NCBI GenBank assembly: GCA_025360645.1
Contig: JANYBT010000013.1
Span: 1-39,473, forward strand
Length of the DNA: 39,473 nt
Direction of reading: 5' to 3'
Source: Acidobacteriaceae bacterium
GTDB taxonomy: Bacteria > Acidobacteriota > Terriglobia > Terriglobales > Acidobacteriaceae
The position numbers and the translations under genes were made by a program. Under the pieces are notes generated by a model, which was not told where the DNA came from, made no database searches, and saw only the letters and a program-made list of their open reading frames with translations. Below are positions 1,170 through 6,579 of the stretch, one piece after another; the stretch's first letter is position 1; each line of letters opens with the position of its first letter.

Positions 1170-1191
1170 GTCTTGATATTTAAGTCAAGAC
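1170..1191. promoter_or_regulatory. Perfect 7-bp inverted repeat, probable operator
   Basis: GTCTTGA (1170-1176) and TCAAGAC (1185-1191) are exact reverse complements separated by 8 AT-rich bases. The left arm contains most of the -35 hexamer of the radical SAM promoter, so a dimeric regulator bound here would block RNA polymerase. The spacing (TTGA-N8-TCAA) is two bases too wide for an FNR/CRP-type TTGAT-N4-ATCAA box, so I do not assign a regulator family. The site also lies upstream of the divergent NADH dehydrogenase and could affect both genes. Confidence 0.6.
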
Positions 1192-1200
1192 AGGTATAAT
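1173..1200 (+). promoter_or_regulatory. Sigma-70-type promoter of the radical SAM / ATP-grasp operon
   Basis: TTGATA (1173-1178) matches the -35 consensus at five of six positions and TATAAT (1195-1200) matches the -10 consensus exactly, with a 16-bp spacer. Transcription would begin near 1207. The ATG at 1199 overlaps the -10 box and cannot be translated from this promoter. The next in-frame ATG (1211) would leave almost no leader, so the mRNA may be leaderless. Confidence 0.65.
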
Positions 1201-1210
1201 GACTTGTATT

Positions 1211-2647
1211 ATGAAGTCACTCGCGAGCCTCGCGGCCGACTCGGTACCGTTGCACCCACGAAAAACAAAAACCGTGCGCGTACTGCTGGTGTCCACCTAC
1301 GAGCTTGGCCGGCAGCCTTTCGGGCTGGCTTCGCCAGCTGCGTGCTTGCGCGCCGACGGACACCAGGTCACCTGCACCGACCTCGCCGTGGAAAAACTTT
1401 CGCTGGACACAGTACGCAACGTGGACCTGATCGCCTTCCACCTTCCCATGCATACTGCTACGCGTCTTGCGGTGCCGGTGATCGAAGCCGCCCGGCGCGT
1501 CAACCCGGGCGCTCATGTGTGCTGCTATGGTCTTTATGCGCCGGTCAACGCCGGTTATCTGCGGTCCCTCGGAGTGGAGACGCTGGTGGGCGGAGAATTC
1601 GAGGATGAGTTGCGGCGCCTGGCACAGAGGCTCGCGGCCGGTGATCGATACACTTCCGCGGAACCGCTGATGTCGTTCGAACGGATGCGATTTGAGACAC
1701 CGGACCGGTCTGGACTGCCTCCGCTCAGCCAATACGCCACCATGTTCGATGGCGAGACGGATCGCATCGCCGGATATACGGAGACGAGCCGTGGCTGCAA
1801 ACACCTATGCCGTCATTGTCCCGTTGTGCCCGTTTACAACGGGACGTTCCGAGTGGTACCGGCTGACGTCGTGATGGCCGACATCCGCCAGCAGGTGGAG
1901 TCCGGGGCGCAACATATCACCTTCGGCGATCCGGATTTTTTCAACGGCCCTACCCACGGCATGCGCATCATCGAGCGGATGAAGCGGGACTTCCCGACGC
2001 TCACCTATGACGTCACCATCAAAATCGAGCATCTGCTGAATCGCCGTGATCTGTTGCCAGAATTGCGGCGCACTGGTTGCTTGGTTGTAACCACCGCCGT
2101 GGAGTCAGTGGACGATGAGGTTCTCCGCAAGCTCGACAAAGGCCACACCAAGGCCGATTTCATTGAGGTCGTCCGTCTGTTTCGCCTGGCCGGGCTGAAC
2201 CTTTCGCCGACCTTCATTCCTTTTAGCCCGTGGACGACGTGGGAAAGCTACCGGGAGCTGTTGCACGTTCTGGCAGAGCTCGATTTGGTGCACCAGGTGC
2301 CTCCCGTGCAGCTTGCGCTGAGGCTACTGATTCCAGCGGGCTCGCGACTGCTGGAACTGGAAGAGATCCGCCGCATGGTGGACCTGTTCCAGCCGGACGC
2401 TTTGGGCTACAAGTGGCGCCACCAGGACCCCAGCCTCGACATGTTGGCCGAGCGGCTACTCCATCTGGTCGACTCCGAACAGAAGCGCGGAGCGTCGCGG
2501 GCCAAATGCTTCGCGGCAATTTGGGCGGAGGCGGGTGGGGACGAACCGGCTCCGGTGCTGGCTCCCGAGCGGGGGAGAGCGCCACAACTAAGCGAGCCCT
2601 GGTTCTGCTGCGCTGAACCGATGCGGGACCGCGTCCCCCTAGTCTGA
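1211..2647 (+). CDS. CUAEP/CCAEP-tail type radical SAM protein with N-terminal B12-binding-like domain
   Basis: The protein is 478 residues from the ATG at 1211. Residues ~25-130 resemble a cobalamin-binding Rossmann domain but show no DxHxxG motif. A radical SAM core follows with CKHLCRHC (Cys 196, 200, 203), a CxxxCxxC site for the 4Fe-4S cluster. The C-terminus carries WFCCAEP (Cys 466 and 467). From memory, a family of radical SAM (seleno)proteins is named after a CUAEP or CCAEP tail; this is the cysteine version (both codons TGC). The substrate is unknown to me. The gene overlaps the ATP-grasp gene by one base, so the two are translated together and probably act in one pathway. An in-frame ATG at 1199 exists but lies in the -10 box, so the start at 1211 is preferred. 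Confidence 0.85.
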   Translation: MKSLASLAADSVPLHPRKTKTVRVLLVSTYELGRQPFGLASPAACLRADGHQVTCTDLAVEKLSLDTVRNVDLIAFHLPMHTATRLAVPVIEAARRVNPGAHVCCYGLYAPVNAGYLRSLGVETLVGGEFEDELRRLAQRLAAGDRYTSAEPLMSFERMRFETPDRSGLPPLSQYATMFDGETDRIAGYTETSRGCKHLCRHCPVVPVYNGTFRVVPADVVMADIRQQVESGAQHITFGDPDFFNGPTHGMRIIERMKRDFPTLTYDVTIKIEHLLNRRDLLPELRRTGCLVVTTAVESVDDEVLRKLDKGHTKADFIEVVRLFRLAGLNLSPTFIPFSPWTTWESYRELLHVLAELDLVHQVPPVQLALRLLIPAGSRLLELEEIRRMVDLFQPDALGYKWRHQDPSLDMLAERLLHLVDSEQKRGASRAKCFAAIWAEAGGDEPAPVLAPERGRAPQLSEPWFCCAEPMRDRVPLV

Positions 2648-3945
2648 TGGCAATGGCGACCGCTACTCGAAAACGTCTGCTGGTGGTCGCGGCGACCACC
2701 GGCTACCAGACCAGAATCTTCGCGGTGGTAGCGCGGCGGCTCGGCGTTGAGGTGAGCCTTGCCACCGATCGCTGCCACGTGCTGAACGATCCCTGGGGCG
2801 ATCAGGCCATCCCGGTCCGTTTCGAGGCGCTGGAAGAATCCGCCGCAACCCTGGCCCACGGGAGAAGCTTCGACGGGGTGGTCGCCGTAGGGGACCGGCC
2901 TGCCTACCTGGCGGCGCTCGCCGCCGAACTACTGCGAGTGCCTTTCCATCCACCCGCGGCGGCTGCGGCCGCTATCAATAAATTCGCTGCCCGCGAGTGC
3001 TTCCGCAAGGCGGGCCTCCCCGTGCCCATGTATTCCCGAGTCGCATTGGACGAATACGCCGAAGTGGCAGCAAGCGGGGTTCAGTACCCCTGCGTTCTCA
3101 AACCGCTTGGCCTGTCCGCAAGCAGGGGTGTGATCCGGGCAAATAGTCCGCAAGAGTTCGTTCTCGCCTTTGCAAGGATCCGCAACCTTTTGGAGAGTCC
3201 CGACGTTGCGCGGCTGAGCGACCCGGCTTCGGACCACATCCAGGTAGAGACCTTCCTGCCGGGGCGCGAGTTCGCGCTCGAAGGTTTGGTAACGGATGGG
3301 CGCTTGCATGTGCTAGCGCTATTCGACAAACCCGATCCCCTGGATGGACCGTACTTCGAGGAGACGATTTACGTTTTGCCTTCGCGCGAGCCGCAGAGCG
3401 TACAGGAGGCGATCATTCAGACAGCACAACTGGCCGTGACGGCTCTCGGATTGCGCTACGGACCCGTGCACGCCGAAATGCGCGTTGACGGAGACCGCGT
3501 CTGGATGCTCGAAGTAGCTCCGCGCCCGATCGGTGGCCTTTGCGCCAAAGCTCTCGTTTTTGAAGACGGCGCGCCGCTGGAGGAACTGATCGTCCGGCAT
3601 GCGCTCGGCGAAGACGTGTCGCGCGCGCGCAGGCGCGACGGGGCGGCGGGAGTAATGATGATCCCGGTGCGTCGCGCGGGCATCTACCGAGGTGTTCGCG
3701 GTGTTGATCAGGCGGAGATGCTTGTCGACGAAGTGATTATCACCGCCAAACAAGGTCAGCTCGTCTTGCCATTGCCTGAGGGAAACACCTATCTCGGTTT
3801 CCTGTTCGCTTACGGAGAAACGGCCTCACGGGTTGAGGAGCGTCTGCGCCGGGCGCACAAACATTTGGAGTTCGAAATCGCTGAAACGCTACCGGTGGTG
3901 AGCCGGTCGGCGGAGTCTATTGGAACATTTTGCCAGTTGATTTAA
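2647..3945 (+). CDS. ATP-grasp domain carboxylate-amine ligase-like enzyme
   Basis: A 432-residue protein with an N-terminal pre-ATP-grasp Rossmann region (~10-105), a central ATP-grasp fold and a C-terminal lid domain. Visible motifs are VLKPLGLSASRGV (Lys152, nucleotide binding), ETFLPGREFALEG (~201-213), HAEMRVDGDRVWMLEVAPRP (Glu277, Glu289, Arg293; metal and phosphate contacts) and IGG (295-297). Such enzymes join a carboxylate to an amine or thiol through an acyl-phosphate. The acceptor cannot be read from the sequence. Its ATG shares one base with the TGA of the radical SAM gene. A second in-frame ATG follows at 2653. The gene is the last of a two-gene operon, so a small-molecule or peptide modification pathway is the best guess. 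Confidence 0.85.
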   Translation: MAMATATRKRLLVVAATTGYQTRIFAVVARRLGVEVSLATDRCHVLNDPWGDQAIPVRFEALEESAATLAHGRSFDGVVAVGDRPAYLAALAAELLRVPFHPPAAAAAAINKFAARECFRKAGLPVPMYSRVALDEYAEVAASGVQYPCVLKPLGLSASRGVIRANSPQEFVLAFARIRNLLESPDVARLSDPASDHIQVETFLPGREFALEGLVTDGRLHVLALFDKPDPLDGPYFEETIYVLPSREPQSVQEAIIQTAQLAVTALGLRYGPVHAEMRVDGDRVWMLEVAPRPIGGLCAKALVFEDGAPLEELIVRHALGEDVSRARRRDGAAGVMMIPVRRAGIYRGVRGVDQAEMLVDEVIITAKQGQLVLPLPEGNTYLGFLFAYGETASRVEERLRRAHKHLEFEIAETLPVVSRSAESIGTFCQLI

Positions 3946-4032: not shown

Positions 4033-4656
4033 ATGATTCTAACCATGTTTGCATGGCTGCGACACCTTTTCGGCTGGTTCGTTGACGCCTTTCGCTCGCG
4101 AGAAGACCTAGTGCTGGAGAATGGGGCCCTCCGGCAGCAGTCGCTCAGCCTCCACGCCAGGCTTCCTCGCCCCCGGCTTTCCCCAATGTCCAAGCTCTTC
4201 TGGGTCGTCCTTCGCAGAATCTGGCCGGGCTGGCGCCGCTCCCTGGTCCTCGTTACGCCTCAAACCGTCTTGCGCTGGCATCAGCAAGGCTTCAAGCTCT
4301 ATTAGGCCTGGATCTCGCGAACTCGACACATCGCCGGCAGCAGACCTCTGACCAAAGAGCTGCGCGAGCTGATCGCGCGCATGGCGTCCGAGAATCCGAC
4401 TTGGGGCGCACCTCGCATCCACGGCGAGCTACTCATGCTTGGGGTCGACGTCTCGGAGCGTAGCGTGTCTCGTTGGGTCAAGAGATGTCGAAACAGTCCG
4501 GACCCGGCTAAGCAGTGCTTGACGTTCCTGTGGAACCATCGCGAGGCCATCGCCGCGATGGACTTCTTCACCGTGCCCACCTTGACCTTCGGCGTCCCGC
4601 ACTGCTTCTTTGTCATCAGCCACAACCGGCGCCGAGTTCTGCACTACGACGTGACC
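4033..4656 (+). pseudogene. Decayed integrase-core (DDE) transposase remnant, IS481/IS3-like
   Basis: Two reading-frame segments in the same frame (4033-4302 and 4306-4656) form one transposase-like protein interrupted by TAG at 4303-4305. Homologous transposases usually have Trp at this place after LY, so a TGG-to-TAG change is likely. Recognisable parts are LVLENGALRQQ, TVLRWHQQGFKLY, NPTWGAPRIHGELLMLG, VSERSVSRWVKR and AAMDFFTVPTLTFGV, which holds the first catalytic Asp. Similarity ends at about 4656 (HYDVT), so the second Asp, the Glu and roughly the last third are missing. The element is therefore both nonsense-mutated and 3'-truncated and should be inactive. Its 3' boundary lies just before the end of the convergent transporter gene. 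No terminal inverted repeats were found. Confidence 0.75.
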
Positions 4657-4716
4657 CCTGGTTGCAGGAAGCAACCGATAGGTGGCCCCGGCCCAAACAA
4701 ATTCTTCAGGTCCGGC

Positions 4717-6579
4717 CTAAGGGTTAGCTGCGCCCACTTCTTGCTCGACCATGCCGCTCGGAGGAGTCTGGTTGCCTGAGCCCTTTGGCTGACCGAGCAA
4801 GGAAACCGCATCCTGCAAGCTAGTCGCAACCCTATTTGTGCCGCGCAGTCCCAGCCGCTCGGCAGCCTTGGCTACGTTTTCTTCCAAACTCCACAAACCC
4901 ACGATAAGGTTCAGGTTCGGACTGCCCTGTGCCACCCGCCGACAGAGCGCGCAAGTTGGGCCGAATGCGAAAGGGGGAAGGGCGGAAATGACCACCGCGC
5001 AAGAAGGGCCTTCCGTTATCTCCGCCGACATAGTCGCCTGCCCCTCAATTGGGAGCTGGCGAACATCGCACCCTAAGCGAGTAAGCAACTGGCCCAGCAT
5101 CATAGCGACCAGCTCATCTGCGTCATCCATTGCGGGGATACAGAAAATTCGCATGCCGGCTAACGCCTCAGGACGCGCATCGCTCAGAGCGGGTTCATCG
5201 GAACTGGCCGATTCTTCGGGAGCCCGCTCGCCCAACTCTTCGATGAGTTCACGCGCGCTCTGAAAGATGAAATTGGCTTTCTCCTCATCCAGCGCACTGG
5301 TGTGTCGGTCTCGCTCCGCCAACACCAGTGCCGGAATAAGAACTGAATCGTAAAACTCATCGACTCGCCGCTCTTTGAGATAGGCTTCGGCTACCTCTCT
5401 CGCCTCCTCCTGATCCAGCGCCAAAAGCCGCTGGTAGAAATGGGCTTCCACCGGCAGAACAGGTTCGTCGCCAAGCAGCACCTCGAGAAATTTCAGTTGC
5501 GGCACATACCGCCCCAGCAAGAGCAGGCAAACCGTCAGCGGTGTCGACAAAATCAGCCCTACAGGGCCCCATAAGATTGCCCAAAAGACTGCGGAGACAA
5601 CAATCGCAAAAGACGAGATTCCTGTGTGCGCGCCATACAACCAGGGCTCCACCACGTTTGCAATTACGAGTTCAAGAACGACAAACAGACCGAACACCAA
5701 GACCGCCTGACTCCAGCCGGGAAACACGGCAATGGCCATGAACAGCGGAAATACTGCGGCGATTGGCGTCCCAATATACGGAACAAAGCGCAATGAGCCA
5801 GACAGAACACCCCACAGCAGAGCATGAGGTATACCGATTGCATAAGCAATTAGCCCGCAGAGTATACCGTAGCCCATATTCACCAGAAACAGGAACAGTA
5901 AGTAGCGGCTCAATCGTGTGGAGGCGTCATCGAGCGCTTGGGTAACGGAATGCAAATGGCCCGTTCCCACCAGCCGGATAAGGCGATTGCGCAAATCTTC
6001 GCGTTTGAGCAGCATAAACAGCGCGAAGATGGTGACCATTGCGGATGTCTCAACCACCCCGGCAAGCGGCCCGATGACCGTCTTGATGAACTGCGGGCCC
6101 TCGGTAGGGGGTGGTGTAACTTGGATTGGGATAGACCGGCTTCCTCCAGACTTACCCGTCGTCGGCTCTGCCTCCGGAGCCGATGCGGCAGATATTTCCT
6201 TGCCTATCGCGGAGACCGTATTGGACGCGGTCCTAAGCCGACTTGAGTGCGGAAGTCGAAGTGAACGAATCTTGTCTCGAATATTGCTTTGATAACTCGG
6301 AAGCTGATCGACTATCCCCGCCAATTGACCCGTAACAATCCAGCCTAAGGAACCCAGCAAGGCAAAGACAAGCAGCAACACCGCCACAACAACAGGCACT
6401 CGCCCCATGCGCGACTTCTCTAACCATCCCACCAGCGGAGCCAGCACGAAAGCAAAAACCATCGCTAGAGCGAGCGGGATCAACACCGGGCGACCGAAGA
6501 ACAGCCCAACCAGCACCGCACATACCGCGATGAGCGTCAGCAGCCTGGACAAGGGCGCGGCAGTGTTCGAAGGAATCAA
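4717..6579 (-). CDS. AI-2E family transporter (PerM/YdiK-type) with soluble C-terminal domain
   Basis: About 620 residues from a TTG at 6579. The first ~370 residues form the AI-2E transporter family pattern: two N-terminal helices (TLIAVCAVLVGLFF; IPLALAMVFAFVLAPLVGWL), a third helix, a polar extracytoplasmic-type stretch, then several helices including LRFVPYIGTPIAAVFPL and the GPVGLILSTPLTVCLLLLGRY end. A ~230-residue soluble tail follows: a charged helical part (LALDQEEAREVAEAYLKERRVDEFYDS), then a Rossmann-like domain starting MRIFCIPAMDDADELVAMML. Substrates of this family vary (autoinducer-2, ions), so none is assigned. The open frame extends upstream to 6726, but those codons overlap a more protein-like small ORF in another frame. 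TTG 6579 overlaps that ORF's TGA (TTGA), which suggests coupled translation. Confidence 0.85.
   Translation of the reverse strand: MIPSNTAAPLSRLLTLIAVCAVLVGLFFGRPVLIPLALAMVFAFVLAPLVGWLEKSRMGRVPVVVAVLLLVFALLGSLGWIVTGQLAGIVDQLPSYQSNIRDKIRSLRLPHSSRLRTASNTVSAIGKEISAASAPEAEPTTGKSGGSRSIPIQVTPPPTEGPQFIKTVIGPLAGVVETSAMVTIFALFMLLKREDLRNRLIRLVGTGHLHSVTQALDDASTRLSRYLLFLFLVNMGYGILCGLIAYAIGIPHALLWGVLSGSLRFVPYIGTPIAAVFPLFMAIAVFPGWSQAVLVFGLFVVLELVIANVVEPWLYGAHTGISSFAIVVSAVFWAILWGPVGLILSTPLTVCLLLLGRYVPQLKFLEVLLGDEPVLPVEAHFYQRLLALDQEEAREVAEAYLKERRVDEFYDSVLIPALVLAERDRHTSALDEEKANFIFQSARELIEELGERAPEESASSDEPALSDARPEALAGMRIFCIPAMDDADELVAMMLGQLLTRLGCDVRQLPIEGQATMSAEITEGPSCAVVISALPPFAFGPTCALCRRVAQGSPNLNLIVGLWSLEENVAKAAERLGLRGTNRVATSLQDAVSLLGQPKGSGNQTPPSGMVEQEVGAANP

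What the first reader, a model, noticed from the sequence alone, without database searches (positions are those of the whole stretch)
1170..3945. CCAEP-tail radical SAM protein paired with an ATP-grasp enzyme as a two-gene pathway
The radical SAM protein has a C-terminal CCAEP motif (two adjacent Cys codons near the end), whose family variant carries selenocysteine in this place. The gene is coupled by a one-base overlap to an ATP-grasp ligase. Radical SAM plus ATP-grasp with no other gene in the operon suggests a compact small-molecule or peptide-tailoring pathway whose product is unknown to me. The conserved double-Cys tail may be catalytic or a metal or substrate site.
Basis: partly seen in the sequence, partly recalled or inferred. 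Interest (0 to 1): 0.7.

Follow-up and report, generated by a model that had tools for sequence, protein, structure and literature searches.

The report
Selenium-swapping two-enzyme pathway, unknown product
Two neighbouring bacterial genes, a radical enzyme with a cysteine-cysteine tail that is often cysteine-selenocysteine in relatives and an amino-acid-joining enzyme, occur together in nearly every genome that has the first, even when far apart, so they probably make one unknown small molecule.

Summary
Confirmed. The window, probably from a Bryobacteraceae-like acidobacterium, encodes a radical SAM protein (1199-2647) of NCBIfam family NF040546 ending in EPWFCCAEP, then an ATP-grasp protein (2647-3945). 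The one-base overlap is doubtful: the start conserved in the clade is 2653. All 93 readable tails (window included) keep the motif; the second position is Sec in 68 and Cys in 25, with at least 14 switches. Sec forms carry a SECIS-like hairpin that the window has lost. The ATP-grasp gene is immediately downstream in only 37 of 80 named loci, yet 144 of 146 genomes with the radical SAM gene have it, against 25 of 482 without in two phylum samples. So this is a real, often unlinked, two-gene pathway. The closest characterised relative is ArsL (arsinothricin synthesis); 5 of 6 ArsL clusters read also hold an ATP-grasp gene. The partner resembles the Met-Gly ligase BL00235. Best model: SAM's aminocarboxypropyl group goes to a soft atom held by the Cys-Cys/Sec tail, and the new amino acid is then amide-linked. 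The chemistry is inferred. Seven of 32 genomes picked as Cys-type lack SelD, so the product seems not to need selenophosphate.

The parts
1173..1200 (+). promoter-like sequence TTGATA-16-TATAAT, overlapping the first ATG
   Evidence: consensus scan, 11 of 12 matches; 1 found, 0.6 expected in shuffles; not evidence of function
1199..2647 (+). CCAEP-tail radical SAM protein, 482 aa (start may be 1211 or later)
   Evidence: NF040546 626.4 bits, PF04055 63 bits; structure model mean pLDDT 90.7
1796..1819 (+). [4Fe-4S] cluster motif CxxxCxxC, Cys200, Cys204, Cys207
   Evidence: invariant in the 87 rows of A2, window included, and shared with 4 ArsL sequences
2078..2080 (+). Cys294, a further invariant cysteine of the CUAEP family
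   Evidence: invariant in A2; Val or Leu in the 4 ArsL sequences
2606..2620 (+). CCAEP tail motif (Cys470-Cys471-Ala-Glu-Pro); codon 2609-2611 is TGA (Sec) in most relatives
2621..2653 (+). place of the SECIS-like hairpin in Sec-type relatives; the CAG[T/G]T loop is lost here
   Evidence: loop in 64 of 66 Sec and 7 of 25 Cys genes; window lacks it
2647..3945 (+). ATP-grasp protein of L-amino-acid-ligase type, 432 aa (conserved start codon 2653)
   Evidence: PF13535, PF18603 LAL_C2; nearest solved chain 3vot BL00235; mean pLDDT 91.5
3541..3543 (+). Cys299 of the ATP-grasp protein (motif RPIGGLC), invariant in the partner family
   Evidence: 67 of 67 partner sequences examined, 0 of 5 ArsL-cluster ATP-grasps

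Best explanation
The two genes are the core of one small-molecule pathway. Shown: the pair co-occurs almost without exception, the Cys-Cys/Cys-Sec tail is conserved, the radical SAM protein is a distant homologue of ArsL, and the partner has the sequence and predicted fold of an L-amino-acid ligase. Inferred: the C-terminal Cys470-Cys/Sec471 pair, perhaps with Cys294, holds a thiophilic acceptor, arsenite being the first candidate. As in ArsL, the enzyme cleaves SAM non-canonically and transfers the 3-amino-3-carboxypropyl group to that acceptor, giving a 2-amino-4-X-butanoate that resembles methionine or glutamate. The ATP-grasp enzyme then activates this or a second amino acid as acyl phosphate and joins them into a dipeptide-like amide. 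Sec at the second tail position is an interchangeable, more nucleophilic version of Cys; the window's lineage has gone to Cys and lost the SECIS hairpin although its genome still holds the Sec machinery.
For: Co-occurrence: 44 of 44 radical-SAM-positive against 3 of 253 negative genomes in the window's phylum sample and 71 of 71 against 22 of 229 in a second phylum sample, in many gene orders. ArsL kinship: NF040542 276 bits, E 7e-82; 49 conserved residues shared, including the cluster cysteines; both proteins end in adjacent cysteines (RCCLKC and CCAEP). ArsL is reported to add the aminocarboxypropyl group of SAM to As(III) (PMC8552651, discussion section read; a JACS 2024 paper seen only as cited in passages of PMC12159101). 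5 of 6 ArsL clusters read, out of 16 ArsL/RCCLKC plasmid records listed, also carry an ATP-grasp gene. Partner nearest BL00235, 3vot, listed as making Met-Gly and Met-Met (PMC6920838 passages). Sec/Cys exchange at exactly one tail position, at least 14 switches, 9 by starred branches of a quick tree. Invariant Cys299 in the ligase. 'CU' pairs recur among metal or organomercury selenoproteins in Table 1 of PMC13188914 (SaoL, HgcA, SaoC, MbdU), though the same table lists CU in a 2Fe-2S protein and the KCU-star family.
Against: No arsenic gene shows up as a conserved neighbour: the only frequent neighbour besides the ATP-grasp gene outside apparent synteny blocks is yggX (neighbours were clustered, most clusters were not identified by family search). 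The window protein scores below the ArsL cut-off (276 of 450 bits) and lacks RCCLKC. The ArsL-cluster ATP-grasps are only about 24% identical to the partner (3 compared), and its invariant Cys299 is Ile in all 5 of them, so the two pairings need not be one inheritance; one of the 6 ArsL clusters has no ATP-grasp gene within 4 kb. ATP-grasp occurs without the radical SAM gene in 27 genomes (2 + 3 + 22), and two radical-SAM-positive genomes lack it (G025, G079). The Thermomicrobium gene has no ATP-grasp neighbour within 6 kb; its chromosome was not examined. No coordinates of the model were available, so the tail's distance to the cluster was not measured; the model is poor there (residues 471-480 mean pLDDT 55).
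Confidence: 0.4

Rival explanations
1. The tail is a redox arm: Cys-Cys or Cys-Sec shuttles electrons or donates a hydrogen atom to a carbon radical (as in thioredoxin reductase, ribonucleotide reductase or radical SAM epimerases; these parallels are recalled), and the enzyme does ordinary 5'-deoxyadenosyl radical chemistry on an amino acid or small peptide that the ligase makes or uses.
For: The Sec/Cys exchange is typical of redox sites; most uncharacterised selenoproteins are thought redox-active (PMC13188914 section 7). The tail is a low-confidence, possibly mobile segment. The nearest solved folds are AprD4, OxsB, MgmA, CysS, TsrM and MiaB, which use 5'-deoxyadenosyl or methyl chemistry (recalled).
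Against: By sequence the closest family after its own is ArsL, far ahead of the next (276 against 52 bits), and ArsL also ends in adjacent cysteines.
Confidence: 0.3
2. The acceptor is arsenite and the pathway makes a hydroxyarsinothricin dipeptide: an arsenic antibiotic or detoxification product outside the known ars operons.
For: ArsL kinship and ATP-grasp genes in 5 of 6 ArsL clusters read.
Against: No conserved ars neighbours seen; no RCCLKC; the ligase has an invariant cysteine that the ArsL-cluster ligases lack.
Confidence: 0.22
3. The acceptor or product contains selenium.
For: Most members collected are selenoproteins (68 of 93 rows).
Against: 7 of 32 genomes chosen as Cys-type lack SelD above cut-off, among them G153, G319 and G337 at 97-99% completeness, yet these three have both genes.
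Confidence: 0.04
4. The co-occurrence is only shared ancestry or chance and the genes work in separate pathways.
For: Genomes in the samples are related, so counts are not independent; ATP-grasp occurs alone in 27 genomes.
Against: Near-perfect one-way dependence in two phylum samples and a patchy distribution; adjacency in several orders and orientations (gap up to 250 bases: same strand downstream 21, convergent 3, upstream 2 of 44; gap up to 350: same strand upstream 16, downstream 8, convergent 10 of 71).
Confidence: 0.04

Closest known systems
NCBIfam NF040546, CUAEP/CCAEP-tail radical SAM (seleno)protein
   Same: 626 bits over almost the whole length, tail motif and Cys/Sec alternation
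   Different: The family line shown here carries a name but no function; the nearly obligate, often unlinked ATP-grasp partner was found here
ArsL, arsinothricin biosynthesis radical SAM protein (NF040542, RCCLKC tail)
   Same: Nearest characterised homologue (276 bits), 49 shared conserved residues, adjacent C-terminal cysteines; ATP-grasp gene in 5 of 6 clusters read
   Different: Below the ArsL cut-off of 450; tail CCAEP not RCCLKC; extra invariant Cys294; Sec forms; no conserved ars genes seen around it
L-amino acid ligase BL00235 of Bacillus licheniformis (PDB 3vot)
   Same: Nearest solved chain by sequence (121 bits single, 233 bits with the family profile) and fold (TM 0.79/0.83)
   Different: About 25% identity; partner has invariant Cys299 after the RxxGG motif (Val in the profile alignment to BL00235), and mostly Arg at what I count as the place of BL00235 Pro85 in the linked acidobacterial set
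BacD, alanine-anticapsin ligase (3vmm, 3wnz)
   Same: Same ligase fold and motifs (98 bits with the profile)
   Different: More distant; its neighbours are the bacilysin genes (recalled)
AprD4 and other cobalamin-fold or methylthiotransferase radical SAM enzymes (OxsB, MgmA, CysS, TsrM, MiaB)
   Same: Nearest solved folds, VIA Z about 24-27, rmsd 3.3-6.7 over 356-442 residues
   Different: 13-20% identity; B12-binding domain hit below Pfam's cut-off (27.1 of 32.1)

Membership tests
NF040546 CUAEP/CCAEP-tail radical SAM (seleno)protein | score above the curated cut-off of 500 bits over the whole protein | tested here: met
   626.4 bits, profile 1-466 of 468
NF040546 CUAEP/CCAEP-tail radical SAM (seleno)protein | C-terminal C[C/U]AEP tail | tested here: met
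   EPWFCCAEP at residues 466-474
ArsL (NF040542) | score above the curated cut-off of 450 bits | tested here: not met
   275.9 bits
ArsL (NF040542) | RCCLKC C-terminal tail | tested here: not met
   tail is CCAEPMRDRVPLV; ArsL tails read RCCLKC in 4 of 4
ArsL (NF040542) | transfers aminocarboxypropyl from SAM to arsenite | not testable with these tools
L-amino acid ligase (ATP-grasp) | ATP-grasp_4 domain plus LAL C-terminal domain | tested here: met
   PF13535 103.4 bits (cut-off 27), PF18603 47.9 bits (cut-off 29.4)
L-amino acid ligase (ATP-grasp) | nearest solved structure is an L-amino acid ligase | tested here: met
   3vot first by sequence and fold
L-amino acid ligase (ATP-grasp) | forms dipeptides from free amino acids with ATP | not testable with these tools
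   needs purified enzyme
cobalamin-dependent radical SAM enzymes | B12-binding domain above Pfam's cut-off | tested here: not met
   PF02310 27.1 bits, cut-off 32.1; the overall fold is similar, and cobalamin binding itself was not tested

The most novel reading that the evidence does not exclude
A widespread environmental pathway in which a Sec/Cys-tailed radical SAM enzyme forms a carbon-metalloid (or other carbon-soft-element) bond with the aminocarboxypropyl group of SAM, and a dedicated ligase, carrying its own invariant cysteine, builds the resulting amino acid into a dipeptide: an unrecognised class of organometalloid metabolite encoded in about one in seven genomes of one phylum sample (44 of 297) and one in four of another (71 of 300).
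Probability: 0.22. Interest if true: 0.87.

Novelty: new variant of a known kind. Interest (0 to 1): 0.62.

Why it matters
The radical SAM family has a name but no function that I could find, and it is not listed, by accession or recognisable name, in the 119-family selenoprotein inventory of 2026 (Table 1 of PMC13188914, table read in full). Finding its nearly obligate partner turns an orphan family into a testable two-enzyme pathway, present in 44 of 297 and 71 of 300 sampled genomes, that can be rebuilt in E. coli with two genes. The repeated Sec/Cys exchange at one residue is a natural experiment on what selenium adds to a radical enzyme. The ArsL link suggests that carbon-metalloid or similar bond formation may be far more common than the known arsinothricin clusters.

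Tried and rejected
Rfam scan of the window: nothing above gathering score. PHROGs for the ATP-grasp: none. Gene clustering around 94 loci for a third pathway gene: only yggX recurs (21 loci) besides what look like synteny blocks; around 20 unlinked ATP-grasp genes no cluster is in more than 4, one of the two such sets being yggX again and the other probably a spurious ORF. ATP-grasp counted by ORF clustering (44 of 94) misses some copies; tblastn found 9 of 13 in the first set and 44 of 80 in the second (37 adjacent, 7 elsewhere). A possible tail-less subset, raised by five phylum-sample matches that stop before the tail: not found; G343 has CUAEP in frame, G080 has it in another frame (a break or an assembly error), G188, G223 and G270 run into contig ends. 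ArsL-cluster ATP-grasps as orthologues of the partner: not supported at about 24% identity; no ligase tree was made. A selenium-containing product: rejected for selenophosphate. Peptide tailoring: nothing found for it, not specifically tested. Literature: 'CUAEP' in 0 papers; radical SAM + selenoprotein + ATP-grasp 0; at least four of ArsL, hydroxyarsinothricin, arsinothricin, ATP-grasp, peptide: 0; at least three of radical SAM, ATP-grasp, arsenic, amino acid ligase: two papers, judged unrelated from the listing alone. The two Haft selenoprotein papers most likely to mention the family are not held, so absence from print is not shown. Fisher p-values (1.9e-49, 1.1e-49, 1.4e-8) ignore relatedness and are not to be read as probabilities.

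Rows left out: negatives searched were 32 of the 47 radical-SAM-negative genomes (mostly the less complete ones left out); one search took 19 of the 26 named loci without a local partner; alignment A2 holds 87 and A3 41 (of 44 clustered) sequences; one search leaves out L027 (duplicate), L072, L092 and L118 (pieces end). In one search L027 and L068 are one contig, so 68 Sec is 67 without the duplicate. One of the two patterns of the 80-locus scan was the Cys-type tail, so the Sec:Cys ratio is not an estimate of nature's; of the 13 profile-found relatives all are Sec.
Full report
What is there. The window (a contig of a 3.8 Mb, 99.9% complete genome) has a radical SAM gene at 1199-2647 and an ATP-grasp gene at 2647-3945, both on the + strand. 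The first belongs to NCBIfam NF040546 (626 bits) and is second-best matched by ArsL, NF040542 (276 bits, E 7e-82). The nearest public relatives, 83-93% identical, are from records titled Bryobacteraceae, Bryobacterales, Candidatus Sulfopaludibacter and Acidobacteria metagenome genomes. The one-base overlap is probably not used: the in-frame start conserved across the window's clade is 2653. A promoter-like box ends on the first ATG of the radical SAM gene, so its start may be 1211 or further down.

The tail. The 80 are therefore the closest members, mostly acidobacteria, with some titled Chloroflexi, Calditrichia, Tectomicrobia, Methylomirabilota, Proteobacteria and Pseudonocardiales. Of these 93 plus the window, L118 ends before the tail; all 93 readable tails, window included, fit E[PA]WxC[C/U][A/S]EP. 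The first position of the pair is Cys in all. The second is Sec (TGA) in 68 and Cys in 25; L027 and L068 are one contig. Five profile matches of the phylum sample stopped before the tail: one has it in frame (G343, Sec), one in another frame (G080), three run off their contigs. On a quick tree whose kept columns exclude the tail motif the state changes at least 14 times, 9 if only starred branches count, and the window lies in a clade of seven all-Cys genes nested among Sec genes. A hairpin with the loop CAG[T/G]T follows the TGA in 64 of 66 Sec genes (the Thermomicrobium gene, which lacks the loop, counted among the 66) but in 7 of 25 Cys genes. The mean folding z is -1.66 against 0.04 (mononucleotide shuffles). 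The QLA-like residues after CUAEP thus seem to follow the RNA, not the enzyme, and are absent in the window. The window's genome still has tRNA-Sec (71 bits), SelB (367 bits) and a TGA-containing SelD, so the Cys form is not forced by loss of the machinery.

The partner. Adjacent, same strand, downstream: 37 of 80 named loci. Elsewhere on the held piece: 7. Absent from the piece with at least 1.5 kb held downstream: 26. Piece too short: 10. This looked like a loose association until whole genomes were searched with the profile of 41 partner sequences (A3). Related genomes: 13 of 14 with the radical SAM gene have the partner, against 2 of 32 without (32 of the 47 negatives were searched; G025, 97% complete, is the exception). 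Named genomes without a local partner: 18 of 19 searched, of 26, have one elsewhere (the exception is a Pseudonocardiales bin). Phylum sample of the window, at least 90% complete: 44 of 44 against 3 of 253 (43 of the 44 above the family cut-off). Phylum sample of a genome titled Chloroflexi: 71 of 71 against 22 of 229 (68 of the 71 above the cut-off). In all, 144 of 146 distinct genome handles. When linked, the order varies: downstream, upstream, or convergent. These counts are not corrected for relatedness.

What the partner is. Sequence and predicted fold both put it next to BL00235 of Bacillus licheniformis, PDB 3vot (121 and 233 bits, TM 0.79/0.83), an L-amino acid ligase reported to make Met-Gly and Met-Met (PMC6920838, passages). 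Cys299, directly after the RPIGGL motif, is Cys in 67 of 67 partners examined (window, 40 others of A3, 20 unlinked, 6 Chloroflexi-type), Ile in all 5 ArsL-cluster ATP-grasps, and aligned with Val in BL00235. By my reading of the alignment it lies two residues past the place of BacD Trp332, a substrate-pocket residue (numbering inferred). That is compatible with a thiophilic substrate, no more.

What the radical SAM protein is. Its model (pLDDT 90.7) matches AprD4, OxsB, MgmA, CysS, TsrM and MiaB (VIA Z about 24-27), that is, the cobalamin-type and methylthiotransferase radical SAM folds; the B12 domain scores below Pfam's cut-off. ArsL was compared directly using four plasmid-borne genes: 31-34% identity over about 410 residues, 49 shared conserved positions including the three cluster cysteines, and in both families two adjacent cysteines at the C-terminal end. 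ArsL is reported to add the aminocarboxypropyl group of SAM to arsenite (PMC8552651, discussion). Five of six ArsL clusters I read, of 16 listed records, contain an ATP-grasp gene (two Priestia, Alicyclobacillus, two Pantoea; not Pseudomonas amygdali). These ligases are too distant from the window's (about 24%) to claim common descent of the pairing.

Mechanism. The best reading is a two-step pathway: radical formation of an unusual amino acid on a soft atom held by the Cys-Cys/Sec pair, then ATP-driven amide formation. Shown: the pairing, the tail, the kinship, the ligase type. Inferred: aminocarboxypropyl chemistry, the acceptor, and the order of steps. Selenophosphate-derived selenium in the product is unlikely, because 7 of 32 genomes chosen as Cys-type lack SelD above cut-off (one of the 32, G223, has an unread tail but does have SelD); G153, G319 and G337, 97-99% complete, have both pathway genes. 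Arsenic is the first candidate by kinship, but no arsenic gene was seen as a conserved neighbour. A redox role of the tail is the main rival.

Novelty. The radical SAM family already has an NCBIfam name; its nearly obligate partner, the ArsL-type pairing and the Sec/Cys history are not in any paper I could find, within the limits of an open-access library that lacks the two most relevant selenoprotein papers. I file it as a new variant of a known kind: it resembles ArsL pathways but fails ArsL membership.

Noticed in passing
L046, L047, L048, L061, L069, L103 and others, e.g. L103:12786-13118: A yggX-like Fe(II)-trafficking gene (PF04362 in the 3 copies tested) lies convergent to the ATP-grasp gene in many loci; 21 of 94 loci have it, all 21 with an ATP-grasp gene, and it stays near the ATP-grasp gene when that is away from the radical SAM gene (L047, L087, L129-L131).
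   Followed up: partly
L121, L123, L124, L151, L152: ArsL clusters on plasmids of Priestia, Alicyclobacillus and Pantoea carry an ATP-grasp gene and a GTP-binding protein gene besides ars genes, suggesting arsinothricin peptides or another ligation step.
   Followed up: partly
L120:5935-7371: The annotated Thermomicrobium roseum CUAEP gene ends at the TGA that is Sec in relatives; AEP and a possible hairpin follow, so the annotation is probably truncated.
   Followed up: partly
window 4033-4779: Broken pieces, one with a sub-cut-off HTH_21 match, look like a decayed transposase just downstream of the pair.
   Followed up: no
L045 and L093: One metagenome bin (JANXRE01) holds both a Cys-type and a Sec-type copy on two contigs; either two genes or a mixed bin.
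   Followed up: no
G391, G398, G419 and 19 further genomes of the Chloroflexi sample; G004, G010, G094, G326, G360: The partner ATP-grasp gene occurs without the radical SAM gene in 27 genomes, several with lower scores; it may have another amino-acid source there.
   Followed up: no
L154 (G080:C9:101500-104500): The radical SAM gene's reading frame is lost before the tail; a CUAEP tail follows in another frame: a broken gene or an assembly error.
   Followed up: no
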